DNA from: a virus
Virus record (IMG/VR): IMGVR_UViG_3300049793_000366
Location: 58,865 to 122,864 of that record
Reading direction: 5' to 3' (one strand)
Length of the DNA stretch: 64,000 nucleotides
The position numbers and the translations under genes are program-made. Below, one piece after another: positions 1,092 to 63,628 of this stretch; positions within the stretch are counted from its first letter, which is position 1, and every line of letters begins with the position of its first letter. The notes below the pieces were generated by a model, which saw nothing but the letters and a program-made list of their open reading frames with translations, was not told the DNA's origin and did not search any database.

Positions 1092-1484
1092 GGTGGAGAA
1101 GACGGGAATCGAACCCGTGTCCAATGATATCAGTGAACTACTTTCTACAAGTTTATTTTAGTTTTCTAACTAAACCAAATAATCAATTTTTTTAACGACT
1201 AAAGAGATAATATGTCGCCGATTCAGTTATATACCACTTGTGTCGAGAACTGTGGTTCCGAAGATTTTGTCGATTTTAAGCAATCTCAAGTTCTTCAACT
1301 TGAGTAGCAGTAGTCTTAGACTTTGCTAATACACTTAAAATATCGGATAACGATCCGACTTCGTTTGTAATTACGTTGCCGTTTACAGATTTTATCTACT
1401 AATTTATTAATCGCACGTTTTATTAGACAAAGCGATACTTGCTTATAACTCTCATCTCATCACCGTCGAAGCCTTAACTTCCCC
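1092..1484 (-). ncRNA. ssrA: transfer-messenger RNA (tmRNA)
   Basis: The 5' end GGGGAAG pairs with CTTCTCC near the 3' end to form the acceptor stem (one G-U). The T arm ACGGG-TTCGATT-CCCGT and the conserved 5' TTCGACGG of tmRNAs are present. CCA is not encoded (CCC follows the discriminator A). The tag frame probably resumes at GGC (1378-1380) and stops at TAA (1276-1278): 34 residues ending ELEIA, far longer than the usual 8-12 and without the LAA degradation end. Stems TCGGAT/ATCCGA and CTCAAGTT/AACTTGAG lie within the tag region. tmRNA with SmpB rescues stalled ribosomes; no SmpB gene is in the window. Confidence 0.92.
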
Positions 1485-14102: not shown

Positions 14103-14372
14103 ATGGAAAAGAACTGTTCTATTTGTGGGAATCCTATCCCAGAAGGAAGGCTTAAGGCTATGCCCAATGCTAAAACTTGTGTTAAATGTTCTGATACTGA
14201 TAAAGTATATGGACATAATATGATTACTGGTAAAAATACCTACTCAGAGCTTCAAATTGTTGATGCTGAAACTTCTCGTAGATTGAGAGCATTAGAGAAC
14301 AGGGCTGGGTATGGTGTATCGAATGGTGTTAAATTTGATTCGGATAAAACAAAAGAATCAGGCGAAGAGTAG
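14103..14372 (+). CDS. DksA/TraR-type zinc-finger protein
   Basis: 89 residues. A four-Cys finger CSICG...CVKC (about residues 5-29) with GRLKAMPNAKTC between the pairs matches the C-terminal finger of DksA/TraR proteins, which bind the RNA polymerase secondary channel. The long coiled-coil of DksA is missing; the charged tail after the finger is short. It may modulate host transcription, but the mini-finger alone is not proof. It lies 20 bases after the ligase in the same direction. Confidence 0.7.
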   Translation: MEKNCSICGNPIPEGRLKAMPNAKTCVKCSDTDKVYGHNMITGKNTYSELQIVDAETSRRLRALENRAGYGVSNGVKFDSDKTKESGEE

Positions 14373-58167: not shown

Positions 58168-59310
58168 ATGCTGGATGTAACTAAACAATGGATCGAAAAC
58201 ACACCGAAAGAATACAGAAAGAAATTCGGTCAATATTTTACCCCTTCTCAAATAAGAAGTAGGCTATTCGAACTTTTACCAAAAATGGAGAATGCCTTAG
58301 TGCTTGAACCAGCTATTGGAACTGGTGAGTTTGTAGAAGACATACAACAGAATTTAAAAGGTTGTACGATAAATGGTTGTGATATAGATCCTGAAATAAT
58401 TAAGAATGTATCACCGAGCATCCCTGTTAAATGTATGTCATTCCTTGACATGAAAGCTGAATCGATATATGATTACGTTATTACTAACCCACCATATTAT
58501 GAATTTACATTAGATGAGTCTACTAAAGAGAAATTCAATTATGTAGTTGATGGTAGAGTAAATATTTACTCTCTTTTCATAAAACATTCTATTGATTTCT
58601 TAAAGCCAGGTGGTTATTTAGCATTTGTGGTTCCTACGTCAATGAATAATGGTAGATACTTCGAAAGACTTAGAAGCTATATAATGAATAATTGTGAGAT
58701 TGAACACATTGAACTATTTAACAGTAGAAACTTTATTGATGCTCAACAGAATGTACAGATTGTTATTCTTAGAAAAGCTTTAAATACTGGTAAGAATATA
58801 TTTTCTAAAAATGGGCTTATTATATTTACACCTGACTGGCAGAAACTTTCAAGTTACTATAAAGACAGTAAATCGATTAAAGAACTTGGATATGCGGTAA
58901 AAACTGGTAGTGTTGATTGGTCTAAGAATAAAGAGAAGCTAATCAACGATTCAAGTTACACGAAGTTAATCTGGTCTCATAATATTAAAAGAGGTAGTAT
59001 AACACTTAGTACCAATAATGATAAGAAGCCTCAGTATATAAATGCTCATGGTATAGAAGGCCCAGCAATAGTAGTCAATAGAATTACGGGTGCTGTTGGT
59101 AAAGGTGCTATCAAAGCTGGTATTGTTACTGGACGATTTTTAGCTGAAAATCACGTAAATGTGATTACTCCGACTAACCCTCAATGTGAACTTAGTGTGA
59201 TTTTGAAGTCCTTATGTGACCCAAGAACAGTTGAGTTATTACAGATGATAACTGGTAATACCCAGCTTTCTAAGACAGAATTAGAAAATTTAATACCAAT
59301 TCGTATATAA
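58168..59310 (+). CDS. N6-adenine DNA methyltransferase, Eco57I/type I-like
   Basis: 380 residues. KKFGQYFTP (about 18-26), SAM motif LEPAIGTGEF (about 49-58), and the catalytic NPPYYEF (about 109-115), in the gamma-class order, followed by a helical target-recognition region. It is the second adenine methylase in the window besides Dam, and is likely anti-restriction or epigenetic. No restriction subunit lies next to it. Confidence 0.88.
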   Translation: MLDVTKQWIENTPKEYRKKFGQYFTPSQIRSRLFELLPKMENALVLEPAIGTGEFVEDIQQNLKGCTINGCDIDPEIIKNVSPSIPVKCMSFLDMKAESIYDYVITNPPYYEFTLDESTKEKFNYVVDGRVNIYSLFIKHSIDFLKPGGYLAFVVPTSMNNGRYFERLRSYIMNNCEIEHIELFNSRNFIDAQQNVQIVILRKALNTGKNIFSKNGLIIFTPDWQKLSSYYKDSKSIKELGYAVKTGSVDWSKNKEKLINDSSYTKLIWSHNIKRGSITLSTNNDKKPQYINAHGIEGPAIVVNRITGAVGKGAIKAGIVTGRFLAENHVNVITPTNPQCELSVILKSLCDPRTVELLQMITGNTQLSKTELENLIPIRI

Positions 59311-59359: not shown

Positions 59360-60577
59360 ATGACCAAAATTCAAAAGTTTTTTCAGTTTAATGAAAGTGC
59401 GCTAGGCTCTACTTTTTGGAATTTAATTCCAGAGTCTATTAAGACTATTCATGCCGTTTTTCAAGCAAGTGGTTATAAGCTATTCTTGGTCGGCGGTGCT
59501 GTGCGAGATTTTATTCAAGATGATATTCCAAAAGATTATGACTTAGCTACTGATGCTCACCCGAAAGAGGTCATGAGCCTATTGGATGGTTATGAACTTA
59601 ACTTACAAGGTAAAGCATTTGGTGTGGTTGTGGTATATACCGAAGACCAACCTCTTGGTATGGAGATAGCTACATTCAGAAAGGATGTTTCTAAAGGTAG
59701 AAATCCTTTAGTTGAGCTTATTGGTGTTACAATAGAAGATGATGTTAGAAGACGTGATATCACATACAATGCGTTATTCTTCGATTTGGATAAAAAGGAG
59801 ATTGTAGATTTAGTTGGTGGCGTTGAAGATTTGAAGAACAAAATCACAAGAATGGTTGGTGATGCGATTGAGCGATTAGATGAAGATTCATTGAGAATTC
59901 TTAGAGCGTTCAGATTCGCCGCGAGATATAACAGTGAACTTGATGCTGATTTAGTTTCAGCATTGAGAAGAAGAAACTGGTTGAAAAATATTAACCACGA
60001 GACTGGTAAGCTTGAAAGAATCTCACAAGAGAGAATTTGGCAAGATGAAATTGTTAAAGCATGGAAACAAGCTAAGAACAACTATACCAAGTATTTAAAA
60101 TTCTTCACTGAGTTTGATATGTGGCCAGAAGTATTTCCGGGTGCTGTAATAAACTCTGATATCGTTAAGTGTGAACACTTCGAGGTTTACATGGCTAACC
60201 TTTTCAGAAATATGGATGTGGATGTTGCTCACCCTCAGAAGTCAGAAGCAGTATTGGTAGCTAATTACAAAATTGATGGTAATACAGCCGCAGTGATTGT
60301 TTTCTTAGTTAGTTTGTTACAGTTAACACCACAGAATGCTCTTAGATTGTATAGAACTAAGACAAGATGCGTTTCTATGGGCTTTGAAGATATAGACCCA
60401 ATGATAATCGATTGGTTCAATGTTAACTCAATAACCGATTCGACACATTCTAAATTCATCAGTTACAGACCTACTGTTGATGTTGAGTTTTTAAAATCTC
60501 AGGGTTTTAAAGATAAAGCTCTTGGTGATGAAATTCAGCGATTAGAGGTGATAGAATTCACTAAGTTAATAAAGTAA
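59360..60577 (+). CDS. CCA-adding nucleotidyltransferase head with capsid-targeting-like N-terminus
   Basis: 405 residues. MTKIQKFFQFNES is the tag with FNE-S. Then LFLVGGAVRD (about 42-50), the metal pair KDYDLAT (about 58-64), the VRRRDITYNAL motif (about 133-143) and the LRILRAFRFAARY helix (about 176-188): a class II tRNA nucleotidyltransferase/poly(A) polymerase. The HD half usual in Bacteroidota is absent and sits at 51716. It would repair or add CCA on tRNAs; neither phage tRNA here encodes CCA. It is the only clearly tagged gene with a host-type promoter. Confidence 0.9.
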   Translation: MTKIQKFFQFNESALGSTFWNLIPESIKTIHAVFQASGYKLFLVGGAVRDFIQDDIPKDYDLATDAHPKEVMSLLDGYELNLQGKAFGVVVVYTEDQPLGMEIATFRKDVSKGRNPLVELIGVTIEDDVRRRDITYNALFFDLDKKEIVDLVGGVEDLKNKITRMVGDAIERLDEDSLRILRAFRFAARYNSELDADLVSALRRRNWLKNINHETGKLERISQERIWQDEIVKAWKQAKNNYTKYLKFFTEFDMWPEVFPGAVINSDIVKCEHFEVYMANLFRNMDVDVAHPQKSEAVLVANYKIDGNTAAVIVFLVSLLQLTPQNALRLYRTKTRCVSMGFEDIDPMIIDWFNVNSITDSTHSKFISYRPTVDVEFLKSQGFKDKALGDEIQRLEVIEFTKLIK

Positions 60578-60602: not shown

Positions 60603-61346
60603 ATGGCAAGATTACAATACATAAAAGATGTTTTAGGAAATAACTATGTGGGTATAGATGTTTACGCAGAAGAGGTTGCTCCTTATTTACAAAAACTGAA
60701 AGATTACATAGATGATGATAAGCAATTTGAAATACTAACTGCTAATCAAAAGTTGCGTGACCACGATAAATGGCACATCACTGTAATTAATGTATTTGAT
60801 TATAACGACTTAGCTAAGTCACTTGGAATGAAAAACTTTCTTGAGAGGTTAGATAATATCTTCAAGATGGAAGTTAACGATATCGATTTTAAAGGTATCG
60901 GTAGAGCAGAAAGAAATGGTAATGAAGCTTACTTTGTTGTTTGTCAGTCTGACTTTTTGAATTCTATTCGAGATTCTTTCAAATTAAACCCAATTGACCT
61001 TCATTGTACACTTGGGTTTAATAGAAAGGATGTTCATGGTGTGAGGAAGAATGAGATTTTGGAGAATAAACCAAAATTTTTAAAAACTATTTCCAATCTT
61101 TATCATAAAGATAAATCTCTATCATTTATAAACGACATTCAAAATTTAGGAATGAAGTTAGATAATATAGAGGTTTTATCCATTACTGATACAGTGTTAA
61201 CTATTCGTTCAAACGATGTGTGTTATGGTATATCTTTAATAAACACTGGTGATGAAGACGTTCTACGTATTGTATCGCAGTACGCAGATAATGGGAGTAA
61301 ATCAATCAATCAATATCAAATAGAGAAAATACTGGGTAAACTATGA
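60603..61346 (+). CDS. 2H phosphoesterase-like protein
   Basis: 247 residues. Two H-x-T motifs, WHITVI (about 59-64) and LHCTLGF (about 137-143), with spacing typical of the 2H family, which cleaves 2',3'-cyclic phosphates or makes 2'-5' bonds. The family includes LigT, tRNA-end enzymes, and the anti-CBASS protein Acb1 of T4. A C-terminal domain of about 90 residues is unknown. It follows the CCA enzyme, suggesting RNA repair, but immune evasion is equally possible. Confidence 0.72.
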   Translation: MARLQYIKDVLGNNYVGIDVYAEEVAPYLQKLKDYIDDDKQFEILTANQKLRDHDKWHITVINVFDYNDLAKSLGMKNFLERLDNIFKMEVNDIDFKGIGRAERNGNEAYFVVCQSDFLNSIRDSFKLNPIDLHCTLGFNRKDVHGVRKNEILENKPKFLKTISNLYHKDKSLSFINDIQNLGMKLDNIEVLSITDTVLTIRSNDVCYGISLINTGDEDVLRIVSQYADNGSKSINQYQIEKILGKL

Positions 61347-61672: not shown

Positions 61673-61760
61673 TCTTATTTTTATTTATCTTTAAGTATCT
61701 GATTATCAACAAGTTATGTTTTATTTTAAATATTGGATGAAAATAGTTCGCTAAAAACTT

Positions 61761-61789
61761 GCACAATAAGAAAAGCGTCCGTATATTTG
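61761..61789 (+). promoter_or_regulatory. Bacteroidota-type promoter
   Basis: CTTG at about 61758-61761, 20 bases, TATATTTG at 61782-61789; ATG 61830 is 40 bases downstream. Upstream of the coding gene and RNA cluster, so it may drive both. Confidence 0.7.
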
Positions 61790-61829: not shown

Positions 61830-62450
61830 ATGGCAGGTATCTTCGACAAAGCAAAAAAGAACGCAGTTGTTAAAACAGCAGCAAAAGACGAAAAAACTCG
61901 TGTAACTATCGATAACCCAGAGTTCTTCGATAAAATTGCTACTTTACAAGTACTTAACGAAAACATGAAACGTGATAAAGCGAAAGCTGACATGATTTCT
62001 GATGAAGTTAAAGAAATGGGTATCGAGAAGTGGGCTGACCTTTATACCGAAAAAGGTAAAAATCCTGAAACCATCATGCTTGAAGCACAAAACGCTACTG
62101 GTGACACTGCTCAAGCAATGTTCATGGTTACAGACAAATACATCAAAATTGACGAAGCTCGTGCTGAACAGTTGAAAGAATCTTATGGTGATGATATCGT
62201 TACCGAAGAAACTACTTTCGCTTTCGATGCTAAGATGCTTGAGAAATATGCTGATATCATCAGCGAATTAATTGAAAATAGCGACAAAATTAAAGATGCC
62301 GACAAAGGCCAGTTAATTGTTGCTACAACCTCTTACAACGTAGCAAAAGGTACTATCGACAAGCTTGATAAGTACGGAGAAGTTGCTACAATGGTTCAAG
62401 AAGTGAAACCAGTTGTAATGATGAAAAATGTAGAGGTTATCAACGGGTAA
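61830..62450 (+). CDS. hypothetical, probably highly expressed early protein
   Basis: 206 residues. MAGIFDKAKKNAVVKTAAKD is basic; the remainder is acidic and helical with DNPEFFDKIATLQ and KADMISDEVKEMGIEKWADLY. Codon choice is strongly biased (C-ending codons) like the capsid gene, yet the promoter is host-type, which suggests an abundant early protein. No family recognised. Directly upstream of the RNA cluster. Confidence 0.6.
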   Translation: MAGIFDKAKKNAVVKTAAKDEKTRVTIDNPEFFDKIATLQVLNENMKRDKAKADMISDEVKEMGIEKWADLYTEKGKNPETIMLEAQNATGDTAQAMFMVTDKYIKIDEARAEQLKESYGDDIVTEETTFAFDAKMLEKYADIISELIENSDKIKDADKGQLIVATTSYNVAKGTIDKLDKYGEVATMVQEVKPVVMMKNVEVING

Positions 62451-62476
62451 CCTTTTAGGAGCGTCTCTTGTTGTCG

Positions 62477-62502
62477 AAGAGTGGTGAGAAATCATCACTC
62501 TT
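62477..62502 (+). other. 11-base hairpin with GAAA loop
   Basis: AAGAGTGGTGA / TCATCACTCTT with one G-U and a GAAA loop, 26 bases past the stop. Followed by TTTG, so a weak terminator, or the first element of a structured leader for the RNA cluster. Confidence 0.6.
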
Positions 62503-62581
62503 TGTCAGATGGTGACTAAATGATACAACCAAATAGGTCACGCTACTATTTAATATAGTAGTTCTCTTAGAAATTAAAAAT

Positions 62582-62647
62582 GGGGATTTAGCTCAGTGTT
62601 TAGAGCGTCTGTAAAGAAGGTCGGTGGTTCGATTCCATCAATCTCCA
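62582..62647 (+). tRNA. tRNA-like gene without an anticodon loop
   Basis: Acceptor GGGGATT / AATCTCC, D stem GCTC/GAGC, T arm GGTGG-TTCGATT-CCATC and discriminator A are all intact. Between D and T arms there are only 16 bases instead of 23: TCTGT is followed directly by AAAGA and AGGTC. Exactly the seven anticodon-loop positions are missing; TCT-GTAA-AGA could close as a 3-base stem with a GNRA loop. The D loop also lacks the GG pair. Either a decayed tRNA or a tRNA mimic. CCA is not encoded. Confidence 0.6.
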
Positions 62648-62649
62648 CA

Positions 62650-62760
62650 AGTGTTGTAGGGCATATTAGGTCAGTTAAAGCACTGACATAGGGGTAGAAT
62701 GACAGTACTTCGTTTTACCAAACAAAAACTACAAGTGTTTACCCGACACTTGGCAACACT
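62650..62760 (+). ncRNA. cloverleaf-like spacer RNA between the tRNAs
   Basis: AGTGTTG (62650-62656) pairs with CAACACT (62754-62760). Inside are GTCAGT-TAAAGC-ACTGAC (62670-62687) and AAGTGT-TTACCCG-ACACTT (62733-62751), plus weaker GGTA/TACC. GGTCAGT can alternatively pair with ACTGACC at 62758-62764, so two folds compete. No TTC loop, so not a normal tRNA. Confidence 0.4.
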
Positions 62761-62765
62761 GACCC

Positions 62766-62837
62766 GGTTTGGTAGCTCAATGGCAGAGCGGCGGATTCTA
62801 AACCCGAAGGTTGTGGGTTCGAACCCCATCCGAACCA
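62766..62837 (+). tRNA. tRNA with CUA anticodon (amber suppressor)
   Basis: 72 bases. Acceptor GGTTTGG / CCGAACC, D arm GCTC-AATGGCA-GAGC, anticodon loop TTCTAAA with CTA at 62798-62800, variable AGGTT, T arm GTGGG-TTCGAAC-CCCAT, discriminator A. The anticodon reads UAG. The anticodon stem has three good G-C/C-G pairs flanked by G-A and A-C mismatches. CCA is not encoded. Body resembles Trp/Arg-type tRNAs, but the charging enzyme cannot be read from the sequence. Confidence 0.8.
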
Positions 62838-62893
62838 CACTGCTTAGTTACATAGTGTGTTACAGATTCTCCTTTAGCAAGAGGATCAGCAGT
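62838..62893 (+). other. structured trailer of the RNA cluster
   Basis: ACTGCT just after the tRNA pairs with AGCAGT at about 62888-62893, enclosing CACAC/GTGTG and a TCTCCTT/AAGAGGA-like hairpin. It leads directly into the terminator and may be a processing signal. Confidence 0.4.
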
Positions 62894-62918
62894 AAAACCC
62901 GTTCTTCGAGCGGGTTTT
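62894..62918 (+). terminator. intrinsic terminator after the RNA cluster
   Basis: AAAACCCG / CGGGTTTT stem, further GTTC/GAGC-type pairing, then CTTTTTT. Confidence 0.85.
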
Positions 62919-62923
62919 CTTTT

Positions 62924-63628
62924 TTACAATAAATTGATTTTGGATATTGGTCTATCACCGCTCTTGAATACACCCATTCCTATAATTACGGAAATAGTAT
63001 CATCTTTCTCTTCGGTTTTTATTGCGCGACTTATAACTACGTCTAAATCATTCTTATTTATGATTAGAACAGACTTCTCAGTCCAAGTGGGTACTACATA
63101 GCATTTTCTATTATTAATGAAGCCAGCCTCAGAGAAACCCATATTCTTACTAAATAGTAGACTATTCTGCTTTTTGTAAATATCATTGAATGCAGGCATA
63201 CTGAATAAAACTATTGAGTCAGCCTTTAGACATGATTCTATACTCGACATTACGTATTCCTTAGACTTAGTTTTCTTTGAGAAAAGTCTCTTGAAGAAAT
63301 TCTTTGCCTTATAAAACTTGATGTATTCTATTACATTAGCATTTGATGATAAATAATTTAGAATGTGACTATGAATGTGACTCTTAGCTAAATTAGCAGC
63401 TATTGGTGTTAAGTCAATATCATTTTTATTATGTTGGATATCAATATTATGTTCATCCAAAACACAGTCTATAAGTACCGTATCAGTTTCGATTAGGTCG
63501 CCTTTGTTGACGGTTGTTTGCTTTTGATACTTACCTTTATTTCTATCGATGTAGAAAATATTTACAATATCGCTAACGTTAGATGCATTCATAGCACCTG
63601 ATAAAATCTCGTGTTTATCTATGTTCAT
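62924..63628 (-). CDS. hypothetical protein
   Basis: 234 residues. NIFYIDRNKGKYQKQT, a His/Asn-rich middle (DIQHNKNDIDL, KSHIHSHIL) and a basic stretch FFKRLFSKKTKSKEY near residue 110. A C-terminal strand pattern VLIINKNDLDVVI. No family recognised. Convergent with the RNA cluster. Confidence 0.5.
   Translation of the reverse strand: MNIDKHEILSGAMNASNVSDIVNIFYIDRNKGKYQKQTTVNKGDLIETDTVLIDCVLDEHNIDIQHNKNDIDLTPIAANLAKSHIHSHILNYLSSNANVIEYIKFYKAKNFFKRLFSKKTKSKEYVMSSIESCLKADSIVLFSMPAFNDIYKKQNSLLFSKNMGFSEAGFINNRKCYVVPTWTEKSVLIINKNDLDVVISRAIKTEEKDDTISVIIGMGVFKSGDRPISKINLL

What the first reader, a model, noticed from the sequence alone, without database searches (positions are those of the whole stretch)
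62766..62837. Amber-suppressor tRNA (CUA) next to genes that still end in TAG
The 72-base cloverleaf has anticodon CTA. Genes ending at 14372, 47851, 53793, 54514, 54955 and 61672 use TAG, and the genes here read through without internal TAG, so the window is not recoded. The tRNA may act on late genes elsewhere, on selected read-through sites, or as a step towards code 15 as in some large and crAss-like phages.
Basis: partly seen in the sequence, partly recalled or inferred. Interest (0 to 1): 0.75.

Follow-up and report, generated by a model that had tools for sequence, protein, structure and literature searches.

The report
Amber-suppressor tRNA in unrecoded megaphage
A half-megabase bacteriophage carries an intact-looking tRNA that would read the UAG stop codon as an amino acid, yet none of its own genes was found to need it, which suggests that if the tRNA is active it acts on host messages or is a passenger.

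Summary
Window 62766-62837 is a real tRNA gene (Rfam 62 bits, ARAGORN) with anticodon CUA. It lies downstream of a conserved 206-aa phage gene and ends at a terminator. All six named genes end in TAG. The window belongs to a 508-kb phage related to the 634-, 642- and 735-kb huge phages.

I read the whole record. It uses the standard code: reading TAG as sense adds 0.9 points of coding density (the TGA control adds 1.7). The one convincing TAG-interrupted ORF pair is two genes, because relatives start the second with ATG where this phage has GTG. Incipient code 15 and essential read-through are therefore not supported.

The tRNA stands alone, 198 kb from the phage's ~60 other tRNAs. The 735-kb relative likewise has two CUA tRNAs isolated from 57 others. 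Its acceptor, D and T arms are intact. Its anticodon stem is mismatched at both ends, as in 5 of 25 phage CUA tRNAs against 1 of 311 controls. A neighbouring tRNA-Ala-like element lacks the anticodon loop.

Suppressor tRNAs in unrecoded phages are already reported (Zeta crAss phages, RsoM2USA). This is a new member. It most likely suppresses UAG at host genes; a neutral passenger is the main rival. Charging and activity are untested.

The parts
61759..61789 (+). Bacteroidetes-type promoter match TTG-N20-TATATTTG upstream of the 206-aa gene; the nearest promoter for the tRNAs
   Evidence: pattern match; 161 such sites in the genome against 80 in reversed sequence; transcription inferred
61830..62450 (+). 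206-aa conserved phage protein of unknown function, stop TAA, probably cotranscribed with the tRNAs
   Evidence: orthologues at 36-56% identity in huge phages; no Pfam or PHROG hit
62451..62581 (+). structured spacer (hairpins) between the gene and the tRNA-like element
   Evidence: fold z-score -5.1; no Rfam family; no relative found
62582..62650 (+). tRNA-Ala-like element without an anticodon loop (keeps G3-U70 and A73)
   Evidence: RF00005 53.3 bits; 73% identical to the phage's tRNA-Ala(TGC); not called by ARAGORN
62651..62765 (+). structured spacer between the two tRNA elements
   Evidence: fold z-score -3.5; no HDV-like fold in a crude scan without positive control
62766..62838 (+). tRNA with anticodon CUA (amber-suppressor type); mismatches G27-A43 and A31-C39; discriminator A73; CCA not encoded
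62896..62935 (+). intrinsic terminator-like hairpin and T run closing the unit
   Evidence: fold of 62839-62935, z-score -4.6; sequence
59360..60577 (+). CCA-adding enzyme (tRNA nucleotidyltransferase), syntenic upstream neighbour; could complete the CCA-less tRNA
   Evidence: phrog_2244 E 7.8e-54, PF01743; 43-55% identical homologues near the 206-aa gene in two relatives
60603..61346 (+). 2H phosphoesterase-like protein, syntenic neighbour
   Evidence: PF22547 E 1.2e-17; conserved in relatives

Best explanation
This is a genuine phage-borne amber-suppressor tRNA gene in a phage that uses the standard code. It is probably transcribed as the 3' part of the 206-aa gene's operon, which carries a CCA-adding enzyme gene upstream, trimmed by host RNases and completed with CCA. 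It would then compete with host RF1 at UAG. No phage gene was found to need it, and UAG suppression would lengthen most of the phage's own TAG-ended proteins by only a few residues. The most likely use is therefore in trans: partial read-through of host UAG-ended genes, as proposed for unrecoded crAss-like phages. The charging amino acid is predicted to be Lys, or possibly Gln (A73, U35, Trp/Lys-like body). Shown: the tRNA gene, the anticodon, the standard code, the isolation from other tRNAs, the intact acceptor, D and T arms, and recurrence in relatives. Inferred: transcription, charging, suppression and host targets.
For: Intact cloverleaf. Standard code across the record. Full-length proteins end at TAG: a helicase (PHROG 14-548 of 556 aa), a sigma factor, and the PheS-related ligase SrmL, which covers its whole profile. 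The only serious read-through candidate is resolved as two genes. Of 33 TAG-ended ORFs of at least 150 aa, all but one would gain at most 48 residues; that one is the resolved pair. CUA tRNAs stand outside the tRNA arrays here (121.6 kb against 319-433 kb) and in the 735-kb phage (690.6 kb against 169-367 kb). In the 86-kb related contig the CUA tRNA has its own promoter-like site; the 735-kb pair has a TATATTTG motif upstream by eye. Phage CUA tRNAs of the same body show no excess of acceptor or T-stem mismatches, so they are not generally decaying. G27-A43 with CUA raised amber suppression in E. coli tRNA-Thr (Komine and Inokuchi 1990, cited in PMC13092985). The same hypothesis is stated in PMC12386605 and PMC7886860.
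Against: No expression, charging or suppression data. The anticodon stem has only 3 pairs and the neighbouring tRNA-like element is damaged, so decay is possible. The gene is absent in the relatives LR745206 and LR756502, hence dispensable. Back-up stops after TAG are raised in this phage (14/57 against 13/151, p = 0.005) but not in the 735-kb CUA carrier (2/25), so there is no consistent sign that the phage protects itself from suppression. No host genome is linked to the phage, so host targets could not be examined.
Confidence: 0.45

Rival explanations
1. Neutral passenger. The site behind the 206-aa gene is a tRNA landing place, and a CUA tRNA with a broken tRNA-Ala-like companion arrived and is drifting without function.
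For: The same site holds tRNA-Met, or tRNA-Leu plus tRNA-Arg, or nothing in relatives. The companion lacks its anticodon loop. The CUA anticodon stem has two mismatches, the worst of 59 tRNAs in this phage. It is absent in LR745206 and LR756502.
Against: Acceptor, D and T arms are perfect, and phage CUA tRNAs as a group show no excess mismatches there (6/175 against 82/2177 pairs; 1/125 against 18/1555). CUA tRNAs recur in the clade (two in the 735-kb phage with full anticodon stems, one in an 86-kb contig).
Confidence: 0.3
2. Incipient or former code 15: the suppressor came first (or remains from a recoded ancestor) and TAG codons are yet to spread, or have been purged.
For: Such pre-emergence is described in crAss-like phages (PMC7886860). 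Lak megaphages on Bacteroidetes hosts are recoded (PMC8346664, listed). The tRNA body matches that of the recoded phage phAss-1.
Against: No TAG inside any conserved gene found; TAG used as stop as often as in the CUA-free relative (7.0% against 7.4%, p = 1). No release-factor (PF00472) gene. CUA tRNAs of unlike acceptor stems in the clade point to repeated gain, not a shared recoded ancestor.
Confidence: 0.1
3. Processing elements rather than decoders. The two tRNA bodies are cut by RNase P and RNase Z to release structured RNAs or to define the 3' end of the 206-aa gene's mRNA, so that anticodon arms are free to degenerate.
For: Damage is confined to the anticodon arms of both elements. The three spacers fold far better than shuffles (z -5.1, -3.5, -4.6). 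The same phage has a GOLLD RNA flanked by tRNA-like sequences.
Against: No Rfam family and no relative of the spacers. The CUA anticodon loop itself is canonical. In the 735-kb phage paired CUA tRNAs have full anticodon stems and no such spacers.
Confidence: 0.1
4. Programmed read-through of a few phage genes by this tRNA at selected TAG codons.
For: A 187-aa adenylate-kinase-like ORF ends in TAG followed in frame by 152 open codons (record 296582-297619).
Against: Relatives encode the 152-aa part as a separate ATG-started gene aligned to this phage's GTG and have the kinase elsewhere. No other candidate of at least 100 codons on both sides. TAG extensions are no longer than those after TAA.
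Confidence: 0.05

Closest known systems
CUA suppressor tRNAs in unrecoded Zeta crAss-like phages (PMC12386605) and the RsoM2USA jumbo phage (PMC8504454)
   Same: phage-encoded tRNA with CUA anticodon and no suppression seen in the phage's own genes (stated for the Zeta phages; the RsoM2USA paper instead assumes several targets)
   Different: here in a 508-kb relative of the Al-Shayeb huge phages, isolated from the tRNA arrays, with a 3-pair anticodon stem and a loop-less tRNA-Ala-like neighbour
CUA tRNAs of Aeromonas T5-like phages (AhSzq-1 and others) and Sinorhizobium phage Phosso
   Same: CUA anticodon; AhSzq-1 is among the best sequence matches of this tRNA (84.7% over 59 bases); A73
   Different: those tRNAs encode CCA and have five-pair anticodon stems; unrelated phage hosts
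Code-15 phages (Lak, phAss-1, crAss-like) with tRNA-Sup-CTA
   Same: CUA anticodon; phAss-1 tRNA is similar in body
   Different: this genome has no in-frame TAG in conserved genes and no release-factor gene; code 11
Theta-ribozyme-associated suppressor tRNAs (PMC10879173)
   Same: phage suppressor tRNA without encoded CCA, in a phage with a CCA-adding enzyme
   Different: no HDV-like fold found at the tRNA 3' end (crude scan); 96% of theta/suppressor phages are recoded, this one is not
Amber suppressors with an unpinned anticodon stem (E. coli tRNA-Thr G27-A43 with CUA, cited in PMC13092985)
   Same: G27-A43 mismatch together with CUA
   Different: a natural phage tRNA; also has A31-C39; activity not tested

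Membership tests
Amber-suppressor tRNA (tRNA-Sup-CTA) | tRNA fold with anticodon CUA | tested here: met
Amber-suppressor tRNA (tRNA-Sup-CTA) | five-pair anticodon stem and intact other arms | tested here: inconclusive
   acceptor, D and T arms intact; anticodon stem 3 of 5 pairs; 5/25 phage CUA tRNAs share this
Amber-suppressor tRNA (tRNA-Sup-CTA) | is charged and inserts an amino acid at UAG | not testable with these tools
   needs tRNA-seq, charging assay or UAG reporter
Code 15 (UAG-recoded) phage | coding density rises when TAG is read as sense | tested here: not met
   0.759 to 0.768 for TAG, 0.776 for TGA control
Code 15 (UAG-recoded) phage | in-frame TAG in conserved genes | tested here: not met
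   full-length proteins end at TAG
Pyrrolysine tRNA (ARAGORN's label 'Pyl') | tRNA-Pyl architecture (very short variable loop, one base between acceptor and D stems, long anticodon stem) | tested here: not met
   two bases (TA) between acceptor and D stem, five-base variable loop, short anticodon stem; features of tRNA-Pyl from general knowledge
Theta (HDV-like) ribozyme-associated tRNA | HDV-like nested pseudoknot starting within 5 nt of the tRNA 3' end | tested here: inconclusive
   no hit in a home-made motif scan, which had no positive control; no HDV family in Rfam scan
GOLLD/ROOL-type ornate RNA (for the structured spacers) | match to the Rfam covariance model | tested here: not met
   none at 62440-62960; a GOLLD does occur elsewhere in the phage

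The most novel reading that the evidence does not exclude
Large unrecoded phages carry amber-suppressor tRNAs as host-directed effectors: separate from their translation tRNAs, with anticodon stems loosened at both ends in a way that favours UAG (perhaps also UAA) decoding, so that host proteins ending in UAG are extended during infection while the phage's own TAG-ended genes tolerate it. The loop-less, G3-U70-bearing tRNA-Ala-like neighbour would be a second translation-directed RNA of the same cassette.
Probability: 0.25. Interest if true: 0.8.

Novelty: new member of a known kind. Interest (0 to 1): 0.45.

Why it matters
Why phages that do not recode keep suppressor tRNAs is an open question raised in the crAss-phage literature. 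This case extends it to the clade that includes the largest known phage, shows the CUA tRNAs kept apart from the translation arrays in two genomes, and gives a measurable structural signature (anticodon stem mismatched at both ends in 5 of 25 phage CUA tRNAs, 1 of 311 controls). Cultured phages with such tRNAs (Sinorhizobium phage Phosso, Aeromonas AhSzq-1-type phages, RsoM2USA) make the question directly testable by deleting the tRNA.

Tried and rejected
1) Genome-wide TAG read-through: 7 TAG stops with at least 70 open codons on both sides against 10 for TGA; the best case fell to comparison with relatives. 2) Back-up stop codons as a sign of self-protection: raised in this phage (p = 0.005 against CUA-lacking relatives) but not in the 735-kb CUA carrier; treated as inconclusive. 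3) 27-43 mismatch as a suppressor-specific adaptation: strong against tRNA-Trp (11/25 against 9/113) and tRNA-Phe (0/92), but tRNA-Lys has the same rate (48/106), so it may be inherited; only the double mismatch (5/25 against 1/311, p = 9e-6) stayed specific. 4) Theta ribozyme next to the tRNAs: none found, but my scan had no positive control. 5) Known ncRNA family for the spacers: none. 6) A bacterial source for this anticodon arm: exact pattern absent from 84,980 GTDB species; no E. coli match; weak matches on four plasmids, of which the one checked is a tRNA-Lys. 7) The loop-less tRNA-Ala-like element in other viruses: pattern absent from IMG/VR. 8) Phage-encoded release factor: none by PF00472.

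Full report
What is there. The window is positions 58,865-122,864 of a 507,910-base virus record. One tRNA is called at 62766-62838 (+), anticodon CUA, and Rfam scores it at 62.4 bits. ARAGORN's name 'Pyl' reflects the anticodon only. The gene order is: methylase (58168-59310), CCA-adding enzyme (59360-60577), 2H phosphoesterase-like protein, a small ORF ending in TAG, a 206-aa protein, a structured spacer, a tRNA-like element (62582-62650), a second spacer, tRNA-CUA, and a terminator. A Bacteroidetes-type promoter motif precedes the 206-aa gene at 61759. The motif occurs 161 times in the genome against 80 in reversed sequence, so a Bacteroidetes host is likely but not shown. No separate promoter of this type was seen directly before the tRNAs.

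What kind of phage. The 206-aa protein has relatives in the uncultured phages LR745206 (634 kb, 54%), LR756502 (642 kb, 53%) and LR756501/LR756503 (735 kb, 36%). These sizes match the huge phages of Al-Shayeb 2020 (PMC7162821; the identification is mine). The phage has about 60 tRNAs in arrays at record 319-433 kb, a tmRNA, and at least ten aminoacyl-tRNA-synthetase-like genes (Glu, Ile, Asn, Asp, Lys, Trp, Tyr, Gln, Val and the PheS-related SrmL). No RF1/RF2 family protein was found.

Is the genome recoded? No. Among 599 ORFs of at least 90 aa, TAG ends 73; among those of at least 200 aa, 16 of 230 (7.0%), compared with 22 of 298 (7.4%) in LR745206, which has no CUA tRNA. Coding density is 0.759 under code 11, 0.768 with TAG as sense and 0.776 with TGA as sense. 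A TAG-ended helicase, sigma factor and SrmL are full length by their profiles. Seven TAG stops have at least 70 open codons on both sides (ten for TGA). The only one with at least 100 on both sides is an adenylate-kinase-like ORF followed by 152 codons. In LR756502 and LR745206 the 152-aa part is a separate gene whose ATG aligns with this phage's GTG, and in LR745206 the kinase lies elsewhere. I therefore reject essential read-through in phage genes of this record. The record is not known to be complete.

The tRNA itself. Acceptor (7), D (4) and T (5) stems are paired. The anticodon stem is mismatched at 27-43 (G-A) and 31-39 (A-C), the worst of 59 tRNAs fitted in this phage. The discriminator is A73 and CCA is not encoded. 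Good sequence matches are CUA tRNAs of Aeromonas T5-like phages and of phAss-1, tRNA-Trp(CCA) of Pseudomonas, Stenotrophomonas and Vibrio phages, and tRNA-Lys; a CUA tRNA of Sinorhizobium phage Phosso matches more weakly. The anticodon arm is nearest to phage tRNA-Trp with C35 changed to U, while the T arm and A73 are Lys-like. From general knowledge of identity rules, Lys or, less well, Gln charging is expected. This is a prediction only.

Isolation and recurrence. In this phage the CUA tRNA is 198 kb from the nearest other ARAGORN-called tRNA. In the 735-kb phage 57 tRNAs lie on the minus strand between 169 and 367 kb, while two tandem CUA tRNAs lie alone on the plus strand at 690.6 kb with a TATATTTG motif shortly upstream (by eye; it did not match the full promoter pattern). 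A CUA tRNA in an 86-kb related contig is preceded by a match to that pattern. LR745206 and LR756502 lack CUA tRNAs. Their acceptor stems differ, so they were probably gained separately.

A comparison across viruses. I scanned IMG/VR for tRNAs of one body type with different anticodons. Among regular cloverleaves, 27-43 is mismatched in 11/25 CUA, 9/113 Trp, 48/106 Lys and 0/92 Phe; 31-39 in 7/25 CUA against 17/311 controls (p = 8e-4); both in 5/25 against 1/311 (p = 9e-6). Acceptor and T stems are no worse than in controls. So phage CUA tRNAs are not simply decaying, and a doubly loosened anticodon stem, as in this phage, is characteristic of them. The 27-43 mismatch alone may be inherited from tRNA-Lys. 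Literature cited in PMC13092985 reports that G27-A43 with CUA increases amber suppression in E. coli, and that an unpinned tRNA-Trp with CUA reads UAA. Caveats: one body pattern, capped control lists, no correction for shared descent beyond removing identical sequences. Most of the matching CUA contigs show no clear TAG-specific gain in coding density, but only stretches of 1-15 kb were examined.

The neighbour. Element 62582-62650 looks like tRNA-Ala (73% identical to the phage's tRNA-Ala(TGC), G3-U70, A73) with the seven-base anticodon loop gone. It cannot decode. No similar element was found in IMG/VR with the pattern tried. It may be a broken gene or a tRNA-like element with another role. 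The spacers fold better than shuffles (z -5.1, -3.5, -4.6) but have no known family or relative.

How it most likely works. The tRNA is made with the 206-aa transcript, matured and charged, and reads some UAG codons in competition with RF1. The phage's own TAG genes would be extended little (median 5 codons for ORFs of at least 150 aa). Hence the benefit, if any, is sought in the host, as proposed for crAss-like phages (PMC7886860, PMC12386605). The main rival is a neutral passenger at a tRNA landing site: the same place holds tRNA-Met, or Leu plus Arg, or nothing in relatives. Neither can be decided without charging and read-through data.

Novelty. CUA tRNAs in phages without apparent recoding are already reported (Zeta crAss clade 8, PMC12386605; a cultured Ralstonia jumbo phage with a CUA tRNA, PMC8504454). 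This is a new member, with a structural signature and a genomic isolation that I did not find described in the papers searched.

Noticed in passing
L019:11555-11969 (record about 432855-433269): GOLLD RNA (RF02032, 232 bits) in the phage, with near-identical tRNA-like sequences at L019:10687 and L019:11977, about 1.2 kb apart, the second just behind the GOLLD match.
   Followed up: partly
record 407698-407772 (L018): A tRNA with an eight-base anticodon loop that ARAGORN reads as the four-base anticodon GGAA: possible frameshift-suppressor type.
   Followed up: no
L230, L237, L238, L241, L262: tRNA genes that seem to hold two anticodon arms in a row (the first with CUA) between one acceptor stem and one T arm.
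   Followed up: no
record 415861-416961 (L018:14461-15561): PheS-related 'mystery ligase' SrmL (NF051887, 434 bits) inside a tRNA/synthetase region, ending TAG TAA.
   Followed up: no
window 1092-1484 (-): tmRNA gene with tag AKSKTTATQVEELEIA in the phage.
   Followed up: no
L177:1570-2865 (Sinorhizobium phage Phosso): 1.3 kb without annotated gene directly behind a lone CUA tRNA; Rfam finds only the tRNA there.
   Followed up: partly
phage tRNA-Trp(CCA) of Vibrio phages D479 and Bakedbeans, Corynebacterium phage phi16 (L179, L185, L187): These carry G27-A43, the unpinned anticodon stem linked with UGA read-through in PMC13092985.
   Followed up: no
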